From Collinsella aerofaciens (GTDB taxonomy: Bacteria; Actinomycetota; Coriobacteriia; Coriobacteriales; Coriobacteriaceae), in assembly GCF_028209885.1 (NCBI RefSeq), contig NZ_JAQLEM010000001.1, positions 50,475 to 114,474 on the forward strand: 64,000 bases of DNA, given 5' to 3'. Below are positions 4,750 through 61,312 of the stretch, piece after piece. The notes under the pieces were generated by a model that had not been told where the DNA came from, searched no databases, and saw nothing but the letters and a program-made list of their open reading frames with translations. The stretch's first letter is position 1. Each line of letters starts with the position of its first letter. A program made the position numbers and the translations under genes.

Positions 4750-5310
4750 ATGAAGTTTGTTTGCCCCGTTTGCGGTTATGTGGAAGAGTTCGACGGCGAC
4801 CAGCTGCCCGAGGACTTCAAGTGCCCCCAGTGCGGCGTTCCCGGTTCTCGTTTCCTGAAGCAGGAGGAGGGCCAGCTCGAGTGGGCTGCCGAGCACGTCG
4901 TGGGCGTCGCCAAGATGGAGGGCGTCTCCGAGGACATCGTTGCCGACCTGCGCGCCAACTTTGAGGGCGAGTGCTCCGAGGTCGGTATGTACCTGGCCAT
5001 GGCTCGCGTCGCCCATCGCGAGGGTTATCCCGAGATCGGCCTGTACTGGGAGAAGGCTGCCCACGAGGAGGCCGAGCACGCCGCCAAGTTCGCTGAGCTC
5101 CTGGGCGAGGTCGTAACCGACTCCACCAAGAAGAACCTCGAGATGCGCGTTGAGGCCGAGAACGGCGCCACCGCCGGCAAGACCGATCTTGCTAAGCGCG
5201 CCAAGGCCGCTGGCCTCGATGCCATCCACGACACCGTGCACGAGATGGCTCGCGACGAGGCTCGCCACGGCAAGGCTTTCGCCGGCCTGCTCAAGCGCTA
5301 CTTCGGCTAA
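4750..5310 (+). CDS. Reverse rubrerythrin (rubredoxin-ferritin fold)
   Basis: 186 residues with the domain order reversed relative to classical rubrerythrin. An N-terminal rubredoxin-like Fe(Cys)4 site (Cys5, Cys8, Cys25, Cys28) precedes a four-helix ferritin-like di-iron domain with ligand blocks [14 protein letters not shown] and RDEARHG. Such proteins reduce hydrogen peroxide in anaerobes, taking electrons from NADH-linked rubredoxin reductases. The frame is open upstream to 4645, but AAAGGA before the ATG at 4750 and the immediate CPVCG motif fix the start. It is monocistronic with a strong terminator. A possible promoter (TTGTTT, 16 nt, TAATAG) lies near 4608-4635. Confidence 0.9.
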
Positions 5311-5442: not shown

Positions 5443-5561
5443 AAGTGAGTAGACTTTTTGGAACTTGCCGAGCAGACCATCCATATCACTTTATAAAGCC
5501 GCAGGTAAATGCCTTGTTGCAAAACGACCTAGTCGCCAAAGTGCCAAAAGTCTACTCACTT
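5443..5561. repeat. 120-bp inverted-ended repeat element, copy A
   Basis: The left end AAGTGAGTAGACTTTTTGG is mirrored at the right end by CCAAAAGTCTACTCACTT. The whole 119 bp is similar to 6863-6982 in the same orientation, including an internal CCGCAGGTA...CTTGTT...CAAAAC block. Conservation extends a few bases past the right end (TTAGATT.GCAG). The right end contains the stop codon of the nuclease-like gene (5552-5554). There is no coding capacity and no transposase. Confidence 0.85.
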
Positions 5562-6679
5562 AGATTCGCAGCCGTCCACAATCGAGCCATTTTGTGTCTA
5601 ACGGGCATCTTTCCGTCGATTACTCCCAATTTTGTCCAGTCAACGAATAGTTCAGACCTGAGTAATGTCTCAGCCCTTTGCTCATCTGAGCTTTTATCAC
5701 GATATTCAGCATCGAGCATCCTGCATACGGCCTTAACGATCGCGCGGAATCTATCCTCATCCGATATCTGTCTGTGTGTCAGGAGAAGCACATCGTAGCC
5801 CATGGCCTGAAGGGCCGTCATGCGGTCAGCGTCACGCAAGCCATCCCCTGCGCGTCCGTGCGAGGCCTTTCCCTGACATTCAATGGCCACCTGTCGCCTG
5901 CCGTCCGGCGAAGACAGAAGTATGTCGATATATACACGGGACTTTCCCACAATCGCTCGAGCACTTGTGCTTAGCATCACTTCAACATTAAGCTCTATGT
6001 CGCAAAAACCTTCGCCTCCCAGTGATCGCGGCAGTGCAAGTAGCAAATACGCCTCGACCTCAAAAGGCGACGCGGCACCCAATGGAACGAGTTGCGACAC
6101 CGTCCTAAATCTATTGCCGTAACGTATCCCGCAAACATCTGAACAAAAACGGTCAAGGTCTCCGCCCAAAACCAAAGCGTCTCGACGCCATAAATTTGAG
6201 GCGGTGCCGTCCTCGGACGGGCAGCGCACCCAACCGAACGTTGTCGAGATCGCGCCCGAATCAATTGCACGCGAAAACTCCGCCTCAAGTGCCGCAGGCA
6301 GAGCGCACACCGCAAACAAGCCACACATCTCCGCCAATACCAAAAGAAGCTGAAGATCCGTCAGATGCCGCGACATGATGAATACCGTCAGTAGAGGAGA
6401 CGTAATCAAAAACCCATGCTCCGTTTCCAGTACGGATTCCCTGGGAAGCTCACCAAGAAACAGCCGCTGCCTAATGCTGGCAGGACAAGTCCGTTTGTTT
6501 CTCGTCTGAACCAATGTATACAACGGAAAACCGAGCGCGACCGCAGCCGTCGGGTTGCGGGCGAGATCATATCGCTGCCGGTCTTCTTCCGGTCGTGGAA
6601 GCGGCGGACACAGAGCGCGGACCTGAGGGGGCAAACGCCAGTACCTAAAAGCCGATATGTCACAAAGTAGATCTTTCAT
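5552..6679 (-). CDS. Orphan protein with PD-(D/E)XK-like C-terminal region
   Basis: 375 residues without a confident family. The C-terminal third has a predicted beta-hairpin containing an Asp (YIDILL) followed about 15 residues later by IECQGK, then an amphipathic helix and a YDVLLLTH strand. That is the layout of DUF559/VSR-like PD-(D/E)XK nucleases, although the expected E-x-K triad is imperfect. The N-terminal part has a SAFRYWRLP block reminiscent of AbiEi-type proteins. No good ribosome site is visible; ATG 6679 was preferred to GTG 6685. The gene lies between two copies of a 120-bp repeat, and its last four residues (NLSE) and stop come from the repeat. Function unknown. Confidence 0.6.
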   Translation of the reverse strand: MKDLLCDISAFRYWRLPPQVRALCPPLPRPEEDRQRYDLARNPTAAVALGFPLYTLVQTRNKRTCPASIRQRLFLGELPRESVLETEHGFLITSPLLTVFIMSRHLTDLQLLLVLAEMCGLFAVCALPAALEAEFSRAIDSGAISTTFGWVRCPSEDGTASNLWRRDALVLGGDLDRFCSDVCGIRYGNRFRTVSQLVPLGAASPFEVEAYLLLALPRSLGGEGFCDIELNVEVMLSTSARAIVGKSRVYIDILLSSPDGRRQVAIECQGKASHGRAGDGLRDADRMTALQAMGYDVLLLTHRQISDEDRFRAIVKAVCRMLDAEYRDKSSDEQRAETLLRSELFVDWTKLGVIDGKMPVRHKMARLWTAANLSE

Positions 6680-6720
6680 AGGCACAGGAAAACACGAATT
6701 TCAACCCAGTCAGTCACGCA

Positions 6721-6738
6721 TTGGCGCGAACGCGCCAA
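6721..6738 (+). terminator. Small GC hairpin
   Basis: TTGGCGCG-AA-CGCGCCAA, a perfect 8-bp stem followed by AAA on the plus strand. It could be a weak terminator or part of the repeat-rich segment upstream of the orphan gene; no gene end clearly depends on it. Confidence 0.35.
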
Positions 6739-6762
6739 AAATGGTGCCGAACGGACTGCCAA

Positions 6763-6828
6763 GTTTTCAACAGCCCTCCCCAACTGGCCAAAAGCTTGCC
6801 GAGAGCTGGACGAAGTTCTGTTGAAAAC
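6763..6828. repeat. Long-loop inverted repeat GTTTTCAACAG/CTGTTGAAAAC
   Basis: A perfect 11-bp inverted repeat separated by 44 nt, between the orphan gene and repeat copy B. It has no T-tract of the expected kind and does not match an obvious operator. Confidence 0.5.
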
Positions 6829-6862
6829 CCCATTTTTTTCTCATGCAGAAGCTTTGCGCGAC

Positions 6863-6982
6863 AAGTGAGTAGACTTTTTTTGAACATCCCGAGCAGCCCG
6901 GTCATCCTGCTTTTCAAAACCGCAGGTAGATAGCTTGTTACAAAACTGCCTGGTCGCCAAAGTTCCAAAAGCCTACTCACTT
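6863..6982. repeat. 120-bp inverted-ended repeat element, copy B
   Basis: The direct-orientation partner of the element at 5443-5561, with ends AAGTGAGTAGACTTTTTTT and CCAAAAGCCTACTCACTT and the same internal blocks. The right end overlaps the last codons of pdxR and supplies its stop (6973-6975), giving the same C-terminal NLSE as in copy A. Confidence 0.85.
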
Positions 6983-8412
6983 AGATTGCAGAGCGCTCCC
7001 ATTAGCTGCGATTCCAAGGTATTTAGCGCTTTTGGACTCAAATCGTCATACTGAACAAGAATTTGACTTGAGTTTTCAGGGACAGATGCGCCATCGGCAC
7101 ACCAAAAACAGTCACCGATATCGATAAAAGAGATGCTCGAGCGCGTGAGGGCCCGTGCAAAAGTGCTTCCGCCCGTTCCACGCTCCGCAACCACGGTACA
7201 GTAAAGGCCCGCATCTGCCTGCTCGATCGAGACTTCCCCTGCCGGAAACGCTTTCCGCACAAGCGACGTCAGGCCATCACGCGCCTCGCGAGCACGAACG
7301 CGCACGCGGTTCACATGTCGCTCGTAATCACCCGATTCCAGCAAACGCGCCAAAGCGACCTGGTCAACAGAGCTCACCGACGAGGCGTAGAAACCAAGGT
7401 TGCGCCTAAACCGCTCCATTAGCTCATCGGGCAACACCATATACGCCAAACGCAACGCCGATGAAAGGCTCTTCGAAAACGTGTTGGTGTAGATAACCGA
7501 CTGGGCGGCATCGATCGATGCGAGCGCGGGAATCGGCTTCCCGGCAAGGCGAAACTCACAATCAAAGTCATCTTCGATGAGATACCGACCTGGTCGCTCG
7601 GCGGCCCAGCTCAGAAGCGCATAGCGACACGCAATGCTCGTCACAAGGCCGGTCGGATACTGATGGGACGGCATCAGGTGAAGGACATCGGTCCCGCTTT
7701 TCTGCAGAGTGCTCAAGTCCACGCCCTCGTCATCCAACGGGATATGTCGAACTTTGCAGCCCATAGCCTGATAGATACGCGTCAGACGCAAATAGCCCGG
7801 GTCCTCAACGGCATACACCTTGTCGGCTCCAAGCAACTGAACCAACATGGTATCGAGCAGCTGGGCGCCTGCACCGATAACAATGTTGTTGGGGTCGACA
7901 TTCATGCCCCTTGTCCCACGCAGATGGTGAGCAATTGCGCGTCGCAGCCGAGCGGTGCCCTGCGCCGGTGCGGGCGAAAAGATTTCGCGCTCATCTTCGG
8001 ATGCCAGCGTCGCCCGTAGTGCGCTTTGCCAAAGCCGCGCCGCCTCCAAAGCGGAAGGAGAAAGTGCATCGAACAGCTCGACCTGTCCGTTGACATCATG
8101 CGCGCTGAGGCCCACAGAGACGGTATCTCGGTCGATGCCCTGCGAAGCCAAAGGCAAAACCGGTGCATCCGGAAGCTTGCAAGCGTAGTAGCCACGACGC
8201 GGCATTGAGCAAATATAGCCCTCGGCAAGTAACTGGCTATATGCATTCTCGATGGTAATGACACTGATTCCCAGATGACTGGCAAAGGCGCGCTTAGACG
8301 GAAGATGCTCCCCCGCCACAATACGTCCAGCAACAATATCATCTCGAATTTGCTGGTAAACATACTCATAAAGCGATGCTTCGCCGCGTTTTTCCAAATT
8401 GTAGTCAAGCAT
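6973..8412 (-). CDS. pdxR: MocR/PdxR-type regulator of vitamin B6 synthesis
   Basis: 479 residues: an N-terminal GntR-type winged helix (about 10-75) fused to a fold-type I aminotransferase-like domain (about 110-470). The PLP-binding segment is intact, with DDFDCEFR (281-288) and Lys314 in NTFSKSL. PdxR proteins sense PLP and activate pdxST; the divergent pdxS start 146 bp away supports that role here. The frame opens at a TTG 11 codons upstream, but AGGTGG before ATG 8412 is the better start. The C-terminus (NLSE) and stop lie inside repeat copy B, so the native tail may have been replaced. Confidence 0.9.
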   Translation of the reverse strand: MLDYNLEKRGEASLYEYVYQQIRDDIVAGRIVAGEHLPSKRAFASHLGISVITIENAYSQLLAEGYICSMPRRGYYACKLPDAPVLPLASQGIDRDTVSVGLSAHDVNGQVELFDALSPSALEAARLWQSALRATLASEDEREIFSPAPAQGTARLRRAIAHHLRGTRGMNVDPNNIVIGAGAQLLDTMLVQLLGADKVYAVEDPGYLRLTRIYQAMGCKVRHIPLDDEGVDLSTLQKSGTDVLHLMPSHQYPTGLVTSIACRYALLSWAAERPGRYLIEDDFDCEFRLAGKPIPALASIDAAQSVIYTNTFSKSLSSALRLAYMVLPDELMERFRRNLGFYASSVSSVDQVALARLLESGDYERHVNRVRVRAREARDGLTSLVRKAFPAGEVSIEQADAGLYCTVVAERGTGGSTFARALTRSSISFIDIGDCFWCADGASVPENSSQILVQYDDLSPKALNTLESQLMGALCNLSE

Positions 8413-8446
8413 GAGTTTGCCACCTGACCTTATCGAGCTGTTCAAT

Positions 8447-28395: not shown

Positions 28396-28419
28396 GCGCT
28401 AGTATAGGGAACAACAGAT

Positions 28420-28516
28420 TCGATGCGGGAGTGCCGGCGGTGCAAACCACAAGGCTGAGAGGGCATGGGGCCCAATCCTTTGAACCTGTCAGTTAATGCT
28501 GGCGTAGGGAGCATGC
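28420..28516 (+). promoter_or_regulatory. TPP (THI-box) riboswitch
   Basis: The conserved thiamine pyrophosphate aptamer core is present: CGGGAGTGCC, GGCTGAGA, CCTTTGAACCTG and a 3' GGCGTAGGGA. An intrinsic terminator starts 10 nt downstream, so TPP binding should stop transcription before thiM. Controls thiM, the thiamine-binding gene and thiE. Confidence 0.95.
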
Positions 28517-28526
28517 CGCCTTTACA

Positions 28527-28556
28527 GGGGCGCTGTCTATGCACAGCGCCCCTTTT
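28527..28556 (+). terminator. Riboswitch expression-platform terminator
   Basis: GGGGCGCTGT-CTATGC-ACAGCGCCCC followed by TTTT, a perfect 10-bp stem directly after the TPP aptamer and 22 nt before the thiM start. Confidence 0.9.
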
Positions 28557-48903: not shown

Positions 48904-48943
48904 AAAAGGGCCGATCGCGCATCTCCGCGGTCGGCCCTTTACG
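48904..48943 (+). terminator. Terminator after four-TM protein gene
   Basis: AAAGGGCCGATCGCG/CGCGGTCGGCCCTTT, a near-perfect 15-bp stem followed by ACGTTT. Confidence 0.8.
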
Positions 48944-48958
48944 TTTGCCTAGATAAAA

Positions 48959-48993
48959 CCCACCAAAATAAACCTGTCCCTTTTTTGGCTGGT
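48959..48993. repeat. AAATAAACCTGTCCCTTTTT hairpin, copy 2
   Basis: The same loop as 28361-28395 (AAAATAAACCTGTCCC), with CCACCAAAA paired to TTTTTTGGCTGG. It lies 2 nt past the RlmA-like stop codon on the minus strand. Confidence 0.6.
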
Positions 48994-57582: not shown

Positions 57583-57880
57583 TGTCTCAATCTGTAACAG
57601 CAGGCGACCCAAAACGGACCCAGATGTTACAGATTGAGACAAACAAACCTGCCCGCCGACACAATCTCAATCTGTAACACCTGACCGCCCAAATTGGGTC
57701 TAGCTGTTACAAATCGAGATAAACGGAAAGGCAGGCAGCCAATGTCTCGTTCTGTAACATCTAGCCGCGCAAATCGACTCTTACTGTTACAGATTGAGAC
57801 AAATAGGCAGGCGGGAAAATAACATCTCAATCTGTAACAGCTGGCGACCAAAAACGGATCCAGATGTTACAGATTGAGAT
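57583..57880. repeat. Array of four palindromic units with ~80-bp period
   Basis: Units at 57583-57641, 57664-57720, 57743-57801 and 57824-57880. Each has the arms TCTCAATCTGTAACA and TGTTACAGATTGAGA (variants in units 2 and 3) around a 24-27-nt G+C-rich centre with related sequence (e.g. GCGACC.AAAACGGA.CCAGA in units 1 and 4). Spacers of about 22 nt also share GCAGGC/CCTGCCCGCC. Noncoding; not CRISPR-like because the 'repeat' is a 57-nt palindrome and the spacers are similar. Confidence 0.85.
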
Positions 57881-58408: not shown

Positions 58409-59290
58409 ATGCAAAACTTGCTTGAACTCAAAGGCATCTCACACGCTGTAAGCGACCGCTTTTCGCTGCGCGACGTCACGCTTGCCGTGGAGCCTGGCCA
58501 GATCATCGGCTTTGTTGGTGCCAACGGTGCTGGCAAAACAACGACGATTCGAGCTGCTCTCGGGCTTATAAAGCTCGATGCCGGCGAAGTGCACCTGTTT
58601 GGGCAGCGCTGTGGCGCCGACGCGCCCGATGAGTCGCAACGCCATCTACGCTCCCGCGTCGGTCTTGTCCTGGACACGTGCCCCTTCCCCTCCACGCTCA
58701 AGGTGGGCCAGATCGAGTCGCTCGTAGGCCCAGCGTACCCCACGTGGGACCGCGAAACGTTCGCCGGATTCATCAACCGATTTGGCCTCGATCCCAAGAC
58801 AAAGGTCAAGGACCTCTCCCGCGGCATGGGCATGAAACTGCAGCTTGCCTGTGCGCTCAGTCACAAGGCCAAGCTGCTCGTTTTGGACGAAGCCACCGCG
58901 GGCCTCGATCCCATGGCACGCGAGGAACTGCTCGATGAGCTGCTTGCCTTTGTCGCCGACGGCCAGCACAGTGTGCTGCTCTCGAGCCACATTACGTCCG
59001 ACCTCGATCGCACCGCTGATCGCGTCATCTGCATCGATAATGGCTCGATTATTTTTGACCTGCCGCGCGAGGACATTACCGACCGCGCCGGCATCGCCCA
59101 CTGCACCCAATCGCAGGCTGCCGAGCTTATGGCTTGCGTCGAAGGCGCCCGTGCCGCCCGTCACGCCTACAGCGTGGACGTACTCGTACCCAACCGTCGC
59201 GAAACGCTCGAGGCCTTTCCCGAGATTCCCTGCGATCGGGCAACCATTGATGACTATCTGCGCCTCATACTGAAAGGGGCTTCGGAATGA
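58409..59290 (+). CDS. ABC transporter ATP-binding protein (YtrB-like)
   Basis: 293 residues: Walker A GANGAGKTTT, signature LSRGMGMK (the LSRGM variant seen with GntR-linked ABC systems), Walker B LLVLDEATAGLD and H-loop SSHITSD. C-terminal 70 residues are non-catalytic. The membrane partner overlaps by 4 nt. No good ribosome site; translation may depend on coupling to the preceding GntR frame. Substrate unknown (peptide, lipid or antibiotic stress). Confidence 0.92.
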   Translation: MQNLLELKGISHAVSDRFSLRDVTLAVEPGQIIGFVGANGAGKTTTIRAALGLIKLDAGEVHLFGQRCGADAPDESQRHLRSRVGLVLDTCPFPSTLKVGQIESLVGPAYPTWDRETFAGFINRFGLDPKTKVKDLSRGMGMKLQLACALSHKAKLLVLDEATAGLDPMAREELLDELLAFVADGQHSVLLSSHITSDLDRTADRVICIDNGSIIFDLPREDITDRAGIAHCTQSQAAELMACVEGARAARHAYSVDVLVPNRRETLEAFPEIPCDRATIDDYLRLILKGASE

Positions 59291-59985
59291 AACGCGCCTT
59301 TATGTCCGAACTCGCCATCGTTCGCACGCTCATCCCGAGCATTGCGGGCGTCGGCTTGTTCATCTTCGTTGTGCTGACGCTCGTCAACGCGTCGGATGGC
59401 GATTCCGGTATGAGCGCCGGCGCCTGCGCCGTCAGTGCCATGTCGCCCATCATAGTCATGAACTCACTGGCCGGTTTCGACAATCAAAACGGTTGGGAGC
59501 GCTACCGGGCAACGCTGCCCTTCTCGCGCAAAGACATCATCCGCGCACGCTACCTGAGCGTTATTGTCTTCTCCGCCGTCATGGCATGTGCAGCTACGCT
59601 TTTGAGCATCGCCTCCATCCCGCTCTTCAACAGCGCGGGCATTCCTTCGACGGGACAGACGGTCTTTGAAATCGCAATCGCCTCGGCAGCATCGATGCTC
59701 ATCTCCCTCATGATGGTGTTTTTGGCGCAGCCGCTGTTCTTTCGATTTGGTCACATGGAGGCGCTGCGCCTATCCGTTGGCCTGTTTGCCCTGCTTGGTT
59801 GCGGCACCATGGCCACGCTGAGCTCCTCCAACCCCATCAGCAACTGGCTCATGTCGATTGCCGGAGCGAATCCCGATCCTGCCGTCCTTGGCGGTCTGTG
59901 CGCAGGAATTGCCGTACTGGCCCTCGCGCTATGTGCAATCAGCTGCGCTGTCAGCACCAAGGTCTATCGAGCGCGCGACCTGTAA
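59287..59985 (+). CDS. ABC-2 type permease
   Basis: 232 residues, six hydrophobic helices with ABC-2 style hydrophilic loop (NGWERYRATLPFSRKDIIRARY) after TM2. Start overlaps the ATPase stop (ATGA). Partner of the ATPase in a GntR-controlled exporter. Confidence 0.88.
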   Translation: MKRAFMSELAIVRTLIPSIAGVGLFIFVVLTLVNASDGDSGMSAGACAVSAMSPIIVMNSLAGFDNQNGWERYRATLPFSRKDIIRARYLSVIVFSAVMACAATLLSIASIPLFNSAGIPSTGQTVFEIAIASAASMLISLMMVFLAQPLFFRFGHMEALRLSVGLFALLGCGTMATLSSSNPISNWLMSIAGANPDPAVLGGLCAGIAVLALALCAISCAVSTKVYRARDL

Positions 59986-60119
59986 TCGACAGCCAAAGGG
60001 CTTGGGCTGCACGCCACCTCATTTACTAGATAAGACGAAGCAGCAACAACGTCGCTACCGCCCTTCACGGCATGCCGTTTAAATCTTGGCAACCAAAGAG
60101 AAGCCGACAGCATATCGAG
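59986..60119. other. 134-bp gap before the 174-bp repeat
   Basis: No gene, promoter or terminator I can support; a GCCGTTT/GGCATGCC palindrome at about 60069-60076 is the only local feature. Confidence 0.3.
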
Positions 60120-60293
60120 GGTGAATGTTTTTCCGAGAAGTGAACGAGTAAAATCAGCACCCCGTATCATCGACATTTTTATGGGCTTAATTCCTGCGGT
60201 TTTTGCCTAGGAATCCTGCGGTTTTATTCGAAAAAAGTGTGCATGCTCCAGGGGTCCATATTTACTCGTTCACTTCTCGGAAAAACACTCACC
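60120..60293. repeat. 174-bp element with 33-bp inverted ends
   Basis: The left end 60120-60152 and right end 60261-60293 are inverted copies (TTTACTCGTTCACTTCTCGG on the right) with one mismatch over 33 bp. The centre is A+T-richer, with two TCCTGCGGTTTT copies at about 60193 and 60214. MITE-like; no transposase, no obvious target duplication. The end motif AAGTGAACGAGTA resembles the AAGTGAGTAGA ends of the 120-bp element. Confidence 0.75.
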
Positions 60294-60436
60294 TTCAATT
60301 CGAGCCTTCACCAAATGGCTCCCCGGAACATAACCCCCGTCTCGCCGCGGCCATATCAAACCTTCATGGTGGGGCGGTATCCTCATGTCCATAAAACTCG
60401 CAGGATAAACCCATTATCCAAGGAGGCACCGCACCC

Positions 60437-61312
60437 GTGTCGTGGGTTGTCGCAGCATTTGCGTCAGCATTCTTTGCCGGCATCACATCCATCTTGGCCA
60501 AATGCGGCATCAAGCAGACCGACTCCGATGTCGCGACGGCCATTCGCACCTGCGTGGTGCTCGTTTTCGCCTGGGCAATGGCGGGCATTTCTGGATCCAT
60601 TGGAACCATTGGCAGCATCGAACCCAGATCCTGGCTCTTTCTCGTCCTCTCGGGACTCGCTACCGGTGCTTCGTGGATCTGTTACTTTAAGGCGTTGAGC
60701 ATCGGAAATGTCAATAAGGTCGTACCGGTCGACAAGATGAGCACCGTGCTCGCCGCGCTGGTCGCCATCGCGCTTTTTGACGAGACGAGCAACCTTGCGG
60801 TTAAGCTCGTGGGAACCGCTGTCATCACCCTCGGCACGTTTTTAATGATCGAGAAGAAGCAGTCCGCCGAACCCGAGCAGCAGCAAGACCGAACCTGGCT
60901 CGCTTACGCCCTCGGCGCCGCCGTGTTCGCGGCACTCACCTCCGTCCTCGCCAAGATCGGCATCGAAGGCATCGAGTCAAACCTGGCCACGGCAATCCGC
61001 ACCTGCGTGGTACTGGTTATGGCATGGGCAATCGTGGCAGCCAAGGGAAAACTGGAGCAGGTCGCGCACGCTGACCGGCGCGAACTCACATTTCTCGCAA
61101 CATCGGGCATCGCGACTGGAGCATCGTGGCTGCTCTATTACTATGCCATCGCTGCAGGCCAGGTGAGTGTCGTGGTGCAGATCGACAAACTATCGATTGT
61201 CGTATCGGTGCTATTTGCGCGCCTGGCATTCAACGAAAAACTCTCCCGCCGCAGCGCCATCGGTCTCGCCCTCATCGTACTGGGCACCGCCGCGCTTGCA
61301 ATTTGGAAGTAG
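60437..61312 (+). CDS. EamA/DMT transporter with near-identical halves
   Basis: 291 residues. Two homologous EamA halves (about 5-140 and 150-290) are unusually similar: SILAKCGI/SVLAKIGI and DVATAIRTCVVLVFAWAM/NLATAIRTCVVLVMAWAI. About ten helices. Likely drug/metabolite exporter, substrate unknown. GTG start with AAGGAGG 11 nt upstream. Confidence 0.87.
   Translation: MSWVVAAFASAFFAGITSILAKCGIKQTDSDVATAIRTCVVLVFAWAMAGISGSIGTIGSIEPRSWLFLVLSGLATGASWICYFKALSIGNVNKVVPVDKMSTVLAALVAIALFDETSNLAVKLVGTAVITLGTFLMIEKKQSAEPEQQQDRTWLAYALGAAVFAALTSVLAKIGIEGIESNLATAIRTCVVLVMAWAIVAAKGKLEQVAHADRRELTFLATSGIATGASWLLYYYAIAAGQVSVVVQIDKLSIVVSVLFARLAFNEKLSRRSAIGLALIVLGTAALAIWK

What the first reader, a model, noticed from the sequence alone, without database searches (positions are those of the whole stretch)
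5443..6982. Twin 120-bp elements bound an orphan nuclease-like gene and each supplies a gene's last four codons and stop
Seen: copies A (5443-5561) and B (6863-6982) lie in the same orientation, each with ~18-bp inverted ends (AAGTGAGTAG...CTACTCACTT). The upstream genes (nuclease-like and pdxR) are unrelated, yet both end NLSE-stop because AATCTAAGTGAGTAG is part of the element. Inference: the element is mobile or amplified, inserts or persists in a set frame at gene ends, and replaced native C-termini. Direct copies flanking 1.3 kb could also delete or move that gene. I do not recognise the family.
Basis: partly seen in the sequence, partly recalled or inferred. Interest (0 to 1): 0.8.

Follow-up and report, generated by a model that had tools for sequence, protein, structure and literature searches.

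The report
Nuclease genes with matching long palindromes
The twin 120-base repeats belong to a large, apparently undescribed set of long palindromes in Collinsella and related gut bacteria, in which most nuclease genes of one family sit beside a palindrome of their own, suggesting that the nuclease recognises and perhaps spreads these DNA elements.

Summary
Copies A and B belong to a 119-bp dyad element (f1) found in 22 of 43 genomes of the genus, with near-invariant ends and no indels within four orthologous groups. Its ends read TAAGTGAGTAG, a stop in all three frames, so the shared NLSE tail is no set frame: 16 pdxR orthologues with the element use all three (8/5/3), and G007, without element and nuclease, shows a native end. 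Central finding: the nuclease-like gene (Vsr-type C-terminal domain, AbiEi-like N-terminal part) and its paralogues have long dyads beside them, 87 of 103 loci against 24 of 366 control ORFs, also in other genera and families of Coriobacteriia. Arms are private to each nuclease lineage (two elements beside one nuclease share arms in 18 of 19 loci; pairs of nucleases under 60% identity in 0 of 3,695), while a core like AACCNCAGG often lies on the axis. Best reading: a nuclease with its cognate palindrome, working like a REP/RAYT pair but with an unrelated enzyme. Recognition, cutting and mobility are inferred, not shown.

The parts
5443..5561 (+). Copy A of the f1 dyad element (119 bp), 3' of the nuclease-like gene; the strand given is the one on which the core reads AAAGCCGCAGGT
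5495..5506 (+). Axial core of copy A (AAAGCCGCAGGT), dyad axis at about 5502
6863..6982 (+). Copy B of the f1 dyad element (120 bp), between the pdxR 3' end and the nuclease 5' end
6916..6927 (+). Axial core of copy B (AAAACCGCAGGT)
5552..6685 (-). Nuclease-like gene, 377 aa; last codons and stop lie in copy A; predicted Vsr-like nuclease domain at about 205-325 and AbiEi-like N-terminal part
6973..8445 (-). pdxR-like gene (GntR + aminotransferase domains), last codons and stop lie in copy B
4750..5310 (+). Rubrerythrin gene, the other neighbour; in G007 its 3' end is 82 bp from the pdxR 3' end with no element or nuclease between
60117..60296 (-). Second long dyad in the window with other arms (36 bp) and two core copies AAAACCGCAGGA on the - strand at 60192 and 60214

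Best explanation
The repeats are the cognate DNA elements of the nuclease-like gene between them. The gene belongs to a family widespread in Coriobacteriia: an AbiEi-like N-terminal part, probably DNA-binding, joined to a Vsr-type nuclease domain. I propose that the N-terminal part reads the private arms and the nuclease domain cuts at or near the axial core, perhaps when the dyad is extruded or single-stranded, and that repair or strand transfer after cutting is what duplicated the element beside the gene and, in some lineages, at a few other places. Shown: the elements, their constraint, the association with the nuclease and the co-diversification. Inferred from fold: a nuclease. Not shown: binding, cutting, movement, any benefit to the host.
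Confidence: 0.62

Rival explanations
1. Autoregulatory operator: the AbiEi-like part represses its own gene by binding the flanking dyad, and the dispersed copies are a small regulon or stray sites. No mobility is involved.
For: N-terminal part resembles AbiEi, a repressor that, as I recall, binds inverted repeats in its own operator; 16 of 37 position-orientation classes at lineage level lie 5' of the gene.
Against: 21 of those 37 classes lie 3' of the gene; spans of 116-177 bp with an axial core are long for an operator; putative catalytic residues are invariant; elements on both sides are common (19 loci).
Confidence: 0.15
2. Homing-endonuclease cassette: the nuclease cuts lone elements and is copied into them with one element on either side; recombination between the two copies deletes it again.
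For: Nuclease domain closest in sequence and fold to I-Bth0305I; nuclease flanked on both sides by its element in 19 loci.
Against: The close nuclease was found once in each of 16 genomes, at the A-B place, never at another f1 element; the empty pdxR site in G007 has no element, while this model expects one; flanking copies are intact, so the cassette would be cut again; some pairs (L280, L295) are not in the same orientation.
Confidence: 0.1
3. Hairpin RNA: the dyad is transcribed and its RNA guides or restrains the nuclease.
For: Strong outer stem (z -5.9 and -5.1 for the strands of copy A, -3.3 and -2.9 for copy B); in arms 47 A-C against 23 G-T mismatches on the core strand, the sense expected if the other strand were RNA, though the rows are related.
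Against: Inside the outer arms complementarity is close to the expectation from column make-up at most positions (clear excess only at 20 and 33, smaller at 22, 38 and 42), with a conserved G-G mismatch at position 19; no Rfam family at its gathering score; orientation to the gene not fixed.
Confidence: 0.08
4. Ordinary MITE of a DDE transposon, with the nuclease nearby by chance.
For: Terminal inverted repeats, small size, several copies per genome.
Against: Association with the nuclease far above control; in G001 no BLAST match at E 10 or less looks like the end of a longer transposon; no target duplication seen; arms private to each nuclease lineage.
Confidence: 0.03

Closest known systems
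REPtron: TnpAREP (RAYT) transposase with its REP/BIME palindromes
   Same: An enzyme gene beside its cognate palindromes, copies elsewhere in the genome, enzyme and palindrome co-evolved (abstract and introduction of PMC8266576 read).
   Different: Enzyme is Vsr/REase fold, not HuH; element 116-177 bp in nearly all lineages, not 20-50 nt; few copies per genome, not hundreds; no activity shown.
EDxHD homing endonuclease I-Bth0305I / Vsr
   Different: The window gene is not in an intron or intein and is flanked by intact copies of its element; extra AbiEi-like N-terminal part.
MTES_1575 and DUF559 Vsr-like domain families (Pfam)
   Same: PF18741 matches 8 of 20 members and PF04480 2 of 20 at E 0.01 or less; the window protein is below the curated cut-off.
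   Different: Domain names without a known role; no linked DNA element is mentioned in the two passages read (PMC3710099).
Ssn GIY-YIG nucleases with dispersed NTS repeats in Neisseria (recalled, no call)
   Same: A site-specific nuclease with dispersed cognate repeats.
   Different: Unrelated nuclease fold; repeats of another kind; from memory only.
AbiE type IV toxin-antitoxin (AbiEi)
   Different: The genes beside the window nuclease are pdxR and rubrerythrin, not a toxin partner.

Membership tests
REPtron (RAYT/REP) | HuH (Y1) transposase | tested here: not met
   Pfam gives only PF18741/PF04480; the model matches Vsr-type nucleases
REPtron (RAYT/REP) | Palindromes of 20-50 nt preceded by GTAG | tested here: not met
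   119-bp element; GTAG occurs inside the arms but not as a tag before a short hairpin
REPtron (RAYT/REP) | Cognate palindromes beside the enzyme gene | tested here: met
   87 of 103 loci
REPtron (RAYT/REP) | Dispersed copies elsewhere in the genome | tested here: inconclusive
   Yes for f1 and G014 (seven places); three copies in G018, none beyond the flanking two in G183
REPtron (RAYT/REP) | Enzyme and palindrome co-evolve | tested here: met
Homing endonuclease (EDxHD) | Vsr-like catalytic domain with conserved acidic and histidine residues | tested here: met
   (by sequence and predicted fold only)
Homing endonuclease (EDxHD) | Gene interrupts its own target site (intron, intein or free-standing insertion) | tested here: not met
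   Window gene flanked by intact copies; empty site in G007 carries no element
MITE | Terminal inverted repeats | tested here: met
MITE | Target site duplication | tested here: inconclusive
   D2 sites and the G007 site are not clean insertions
MITE | Autonomous transposon with the same ends | tested here: inconclusive
   None in G001 by BLAST; other genomes not examined for it
Integron attC | R boxes RYYYAAC / GTTRRRY at the ends | tested here: not met
   Ends are AAGTGAGTAG..CTACTCACTT; box sequences recalled
AbiE type IV toxin-antitoxin | Adjacent AbiEii toxin gene | tested here: not met
   Window locus only: neighbours pdxR and rubrerythrin
Known structured RNA (Rfam) | Match to a covariance model at its gathering score | tested here: not met
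   Whole window and ten loci; below the gathering score only chance-like matches, one of them over an element in L214 (25 bits, gathering 245)

The most novel reading that the evidence does not exclude
Coriobacteriia carry a class-wide, undescribed kind of nuclease-repeat pair: each Vsr/AbiEi-like nuclease lineage has its own long dyad target built from private arms around a shared axial core, changes the arms as it diverges, and cuts and disperses the element; an independent counterpart of REP/RAYT with an unrelated enzyme, and a function for a large orphan nuclease family.
Probability: 0.5. Interest if true: 0.9.

Novelty: categorically new. Interest (0 to 1): 0.82.

Why it matters
It gives a testable role to a common nuclease family without known function (matches at E 1e-10 or less, many to the nuclease domain only, in 106 of 197 Coriobacteriia genomes) and may account for many of the 2 to 46 core sites per genome in the genus. 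The many natural nuclease-arm pairs with a similar core would let specificity be decoded by arm swaps. If the nuclease does not act on its dyad, the conservation of arms and length across species becomes an odder puzzle still.

Tried and rejected
Set frame at gene ends: rejected by pdxR orthologues in all three frames. RNA structure: outer stem strong, little covariation inside, no Rfam family at its gathering score (one search gave one chance-like match outside the element). Clean empty sites: the D2 locus differs by a larger block, E2 likewise by coordinates. F and F2: in two genomes (G020, G005) two f1 copies bound a 14-kb gene block; beside the single F copy the block is missing in L061, L068, L075, L081 and L098, but present at least in part in L047, L052, L056, L084 and L095, whose stretches end before F2 could be seen; I draw no mechanism from it. 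An apparent solo end near copy D is a chance match beside a terminator. A 1,785-bp circular plasmid record (NZ_OY725722.1) with a truncated nuclease looked like an excised circle; the rest reads like part of an insertion-sequence gene and the element piece stops short of the core, so I take it for an assembly product. No relative in phage records or viral contigs. A family missing from the 'pdb_via' list is not excluded. Literature: nothing on this pairing in the listings of ten searches of the held library; most subscription journals and all preprints are not held. Mismatch asymmetry in arms is not independent evidence because rows are related. f1 copy number with and without the close nuclease: Mann-Whitney p 0.0006, and 0.10 after taking off the two copies beside the gene (counts typed). 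In G014 only one of seven places lies at an f1 place; the other six share no flanking genes with the 14 f1 reference loci compared.

Full report
What was checked. Copies A and B are real. An exact pattern found the element in 22 of 43 genomes of the genus and in none of 22 genomes of other genera of the family, in 83 stretches of the species-representative collection, all titled Collinsella, and in no IMG/VR contig. I call this family f1.

Anatomy of f1. From the loci fetched I took 97 matches, a few of them fetched twice, 78 distinct. Lengths are 119 (92), 120 (3) and 118 (2). In the 73 distinct 119-bp sequences the ten outermost positions of both arms show 2 changes in 1,460 cells (counted from the table). 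The parts are: outer arms AAGTGAGTAG[A/G]CTTTT, an inner CGA[G/C]CA motif at about 27-33 from each end, and a core AAACC-GCA-GGT on the axis. At position 30 the left arm keeps G while the right arm varies, and inside the outer arms complementarity is close to the expectation from column make-up at most positions, with a clear excess only at 20 and 33 and a smaller one at 22, 38 and 42; this speaks for motifs read by a protein rather than for an RNA helix. In four orthologous groups (A, C, D, E; 11-15 sequences each) the 16-bp arms are 96-100% identical and the element has no gaps; flanks show up to 0.17 gaps per base in D and E, but few in C and on one side of A.

Gene ends. Each end reads TAAGTGAGTAG, which holds TAA, TGA and TAG in the three frames, so a gene entering the element stops within about ten bases. 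In 18 loci with pdxR, 16 have the element, with tails NLSE* (8), LQPK* (5) and HSAT*/HSVT* (3); G007 has no element and ends LQEQLQ*; G014 has no copy B and ends LRTIL*. In G007 the rubrerythrin and pdxR ends are 82 bp apart with neither element nor nuclease: the whole A-nuclease-B unit is absent.

From element to nuclease. G014 is the one genome of 21 without f1 in which pdxR was found at E 1e-60 or less. It has a nuclease of 40% identity at the same place and beside it a different long dyad (ends TTCGAAATAGGTACCC), with matches at seven places in that genome. The f1 core turned up, by eye, at the centre of other unrelated palindromes. AAAACCGCAGG occurs in 43 of 43 genus genomes and outnumbers the reversed pattern in 42 of them, for example 46 to 1 in G022, but 2 to 2 in G014. 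Printing the surroundings in 50 loci showed, by eye, several families with other outer arms, while some sites (for example L182, L183, L204, L206) show no palindrome. Nuclease paralogues lay next to some of these families, which led to the test below.

Test of the association. I located the nuclease with a profile of 20 paralogues in 131 loci, 104 of them unique. With one poly-C artefact dropped, 87 of 103 have a dyad beside the gene, 61 of 68 in the genus and 26 of 35 outside it. Controls: 24 of 366 other ORFs of 300 or more codons, or 90 of 366 if the f1 elements that chose those loci are counted; and, in the nuclease loci themselves, 106 dyads in 122 kb near the gene against 8 in 171 kb far from it. 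At 60% identity there are 64 lineages, 55 with a dyad. Limits: the control ORFs come from f1-species loci and six G014 loci or neighbouring stretches only, and the nuclease loci are not a random sample of the class; they came from best matches and from 40 stretches that I chose.

Cognate arms. Two elements beside one nuclease share arms at score 15 or more in 18 of 19 loci, the 19th scoring 14; nuclease pairs below 60% identity do so in 0 of 3,695 (pairs without a BLAST match counted as low), pairs of 60-80% in 20% of 15, pairs of 80% or more in 89% of 118. One element per lineage scored for the core gives 19 of 55 at 8 of 9 or better against 2.2 in mononucleotide shuffles; 14 of these 19, and 28 of all 55 best matches, lie within two bases of the axis. 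The inner motif GAGTAGAC is found at 7 of 8 or better in 34 of 110 arms against about 1% in shuffles. In 30 lineages with a scorable core the orientation of the element to the gene is not fixed, and paired elements are in the same orientation in some loci (f1, L128, L229, L249) and not in others (L280, L295).

Phyletic pattern and dispersal. All 16 genus genomes with the close nuclease have f1; 6 have f1 without it; 21 have neither. Arms are as intact in three of the nuclease-less genomes (10 copies, mean 0.50 mismatches in 32 bp) as in the others (79 copies, 0.58). Dispersal differs: f1 and the G014 family are dispersed, the G018 family has three copies, the G183 family only the flanking two.

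Reading. The strongest statement is genetic: this nuclease family and these long dyads belong together and diversify together. A recognition pair is the simplest cause. That the enzyme cuts the core, and that cutting spreads the element, is my inference from the fold and from the parallel with REP/RAYT (abstract and introduction of PMC8266576). It is not a member of that family: the HuH enzyme and the short GTAG-tagged palindrome are not met. I rate it categorically new because I know of no system that shares both parts and found none in the ten searches; the principle of an enzyme with cognate dispersed palindromes is known.

Noticed in passing
window 60117-60296: A second long dyad with two core copies and other arms (..GAAGTGAACGAGTAAA), between ORFs that read to me like a membrane protein (59287-59985) and an EamA-type transporter (60437-61312), names not from a search; no second nuclease of the family in the window.
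   Followed up: partly
L089 15396-16803 and L059 15254: In G019 the C copy of f1 is split at its axial core (ACCTGC/GG) by an insertion sequence with an IS110-like transposase (name from my reading of the translation); G005 shows the same left junction at a contig end.
   Followed up: partly
L100 605-2223: In G025 the B copy carries an off-centre insertion sequence, IS256-like by my reading, with an apparent 9-base duplication AGCAGGATG.
   Followed up: partly
window 48942-48985; L053, L055, L093, L098, L099: A frequent short REP-like repeat, ACCTGCCAAAAATAAACCTGTCCCTTTTTGGCAGGT, close to several of the f1 loci.
   Followed up: no
L093 2173-16383 against L098, L061, L075: A 14-kb gene block lies between two f1 copies in two genomes and is missing beside the single copy in five loci, present beside it in five others.
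   Followed up: partly
window 57622-57762: Degenerate copies of TGTTACAGATTGAGA in direct and inverted order, a dyad without the core.
   Followed up: no
window 28417-28527: TPP riboswitch, above Rfam's gathering score.
   Followed up: no
NZ_OY725722.1 (L327): A 1,785-bp circular plasmid record of Collinsella aerofaciens holding a truncated nuclease of this family and part of an element; probably an assembly product.
   Followed up: partly
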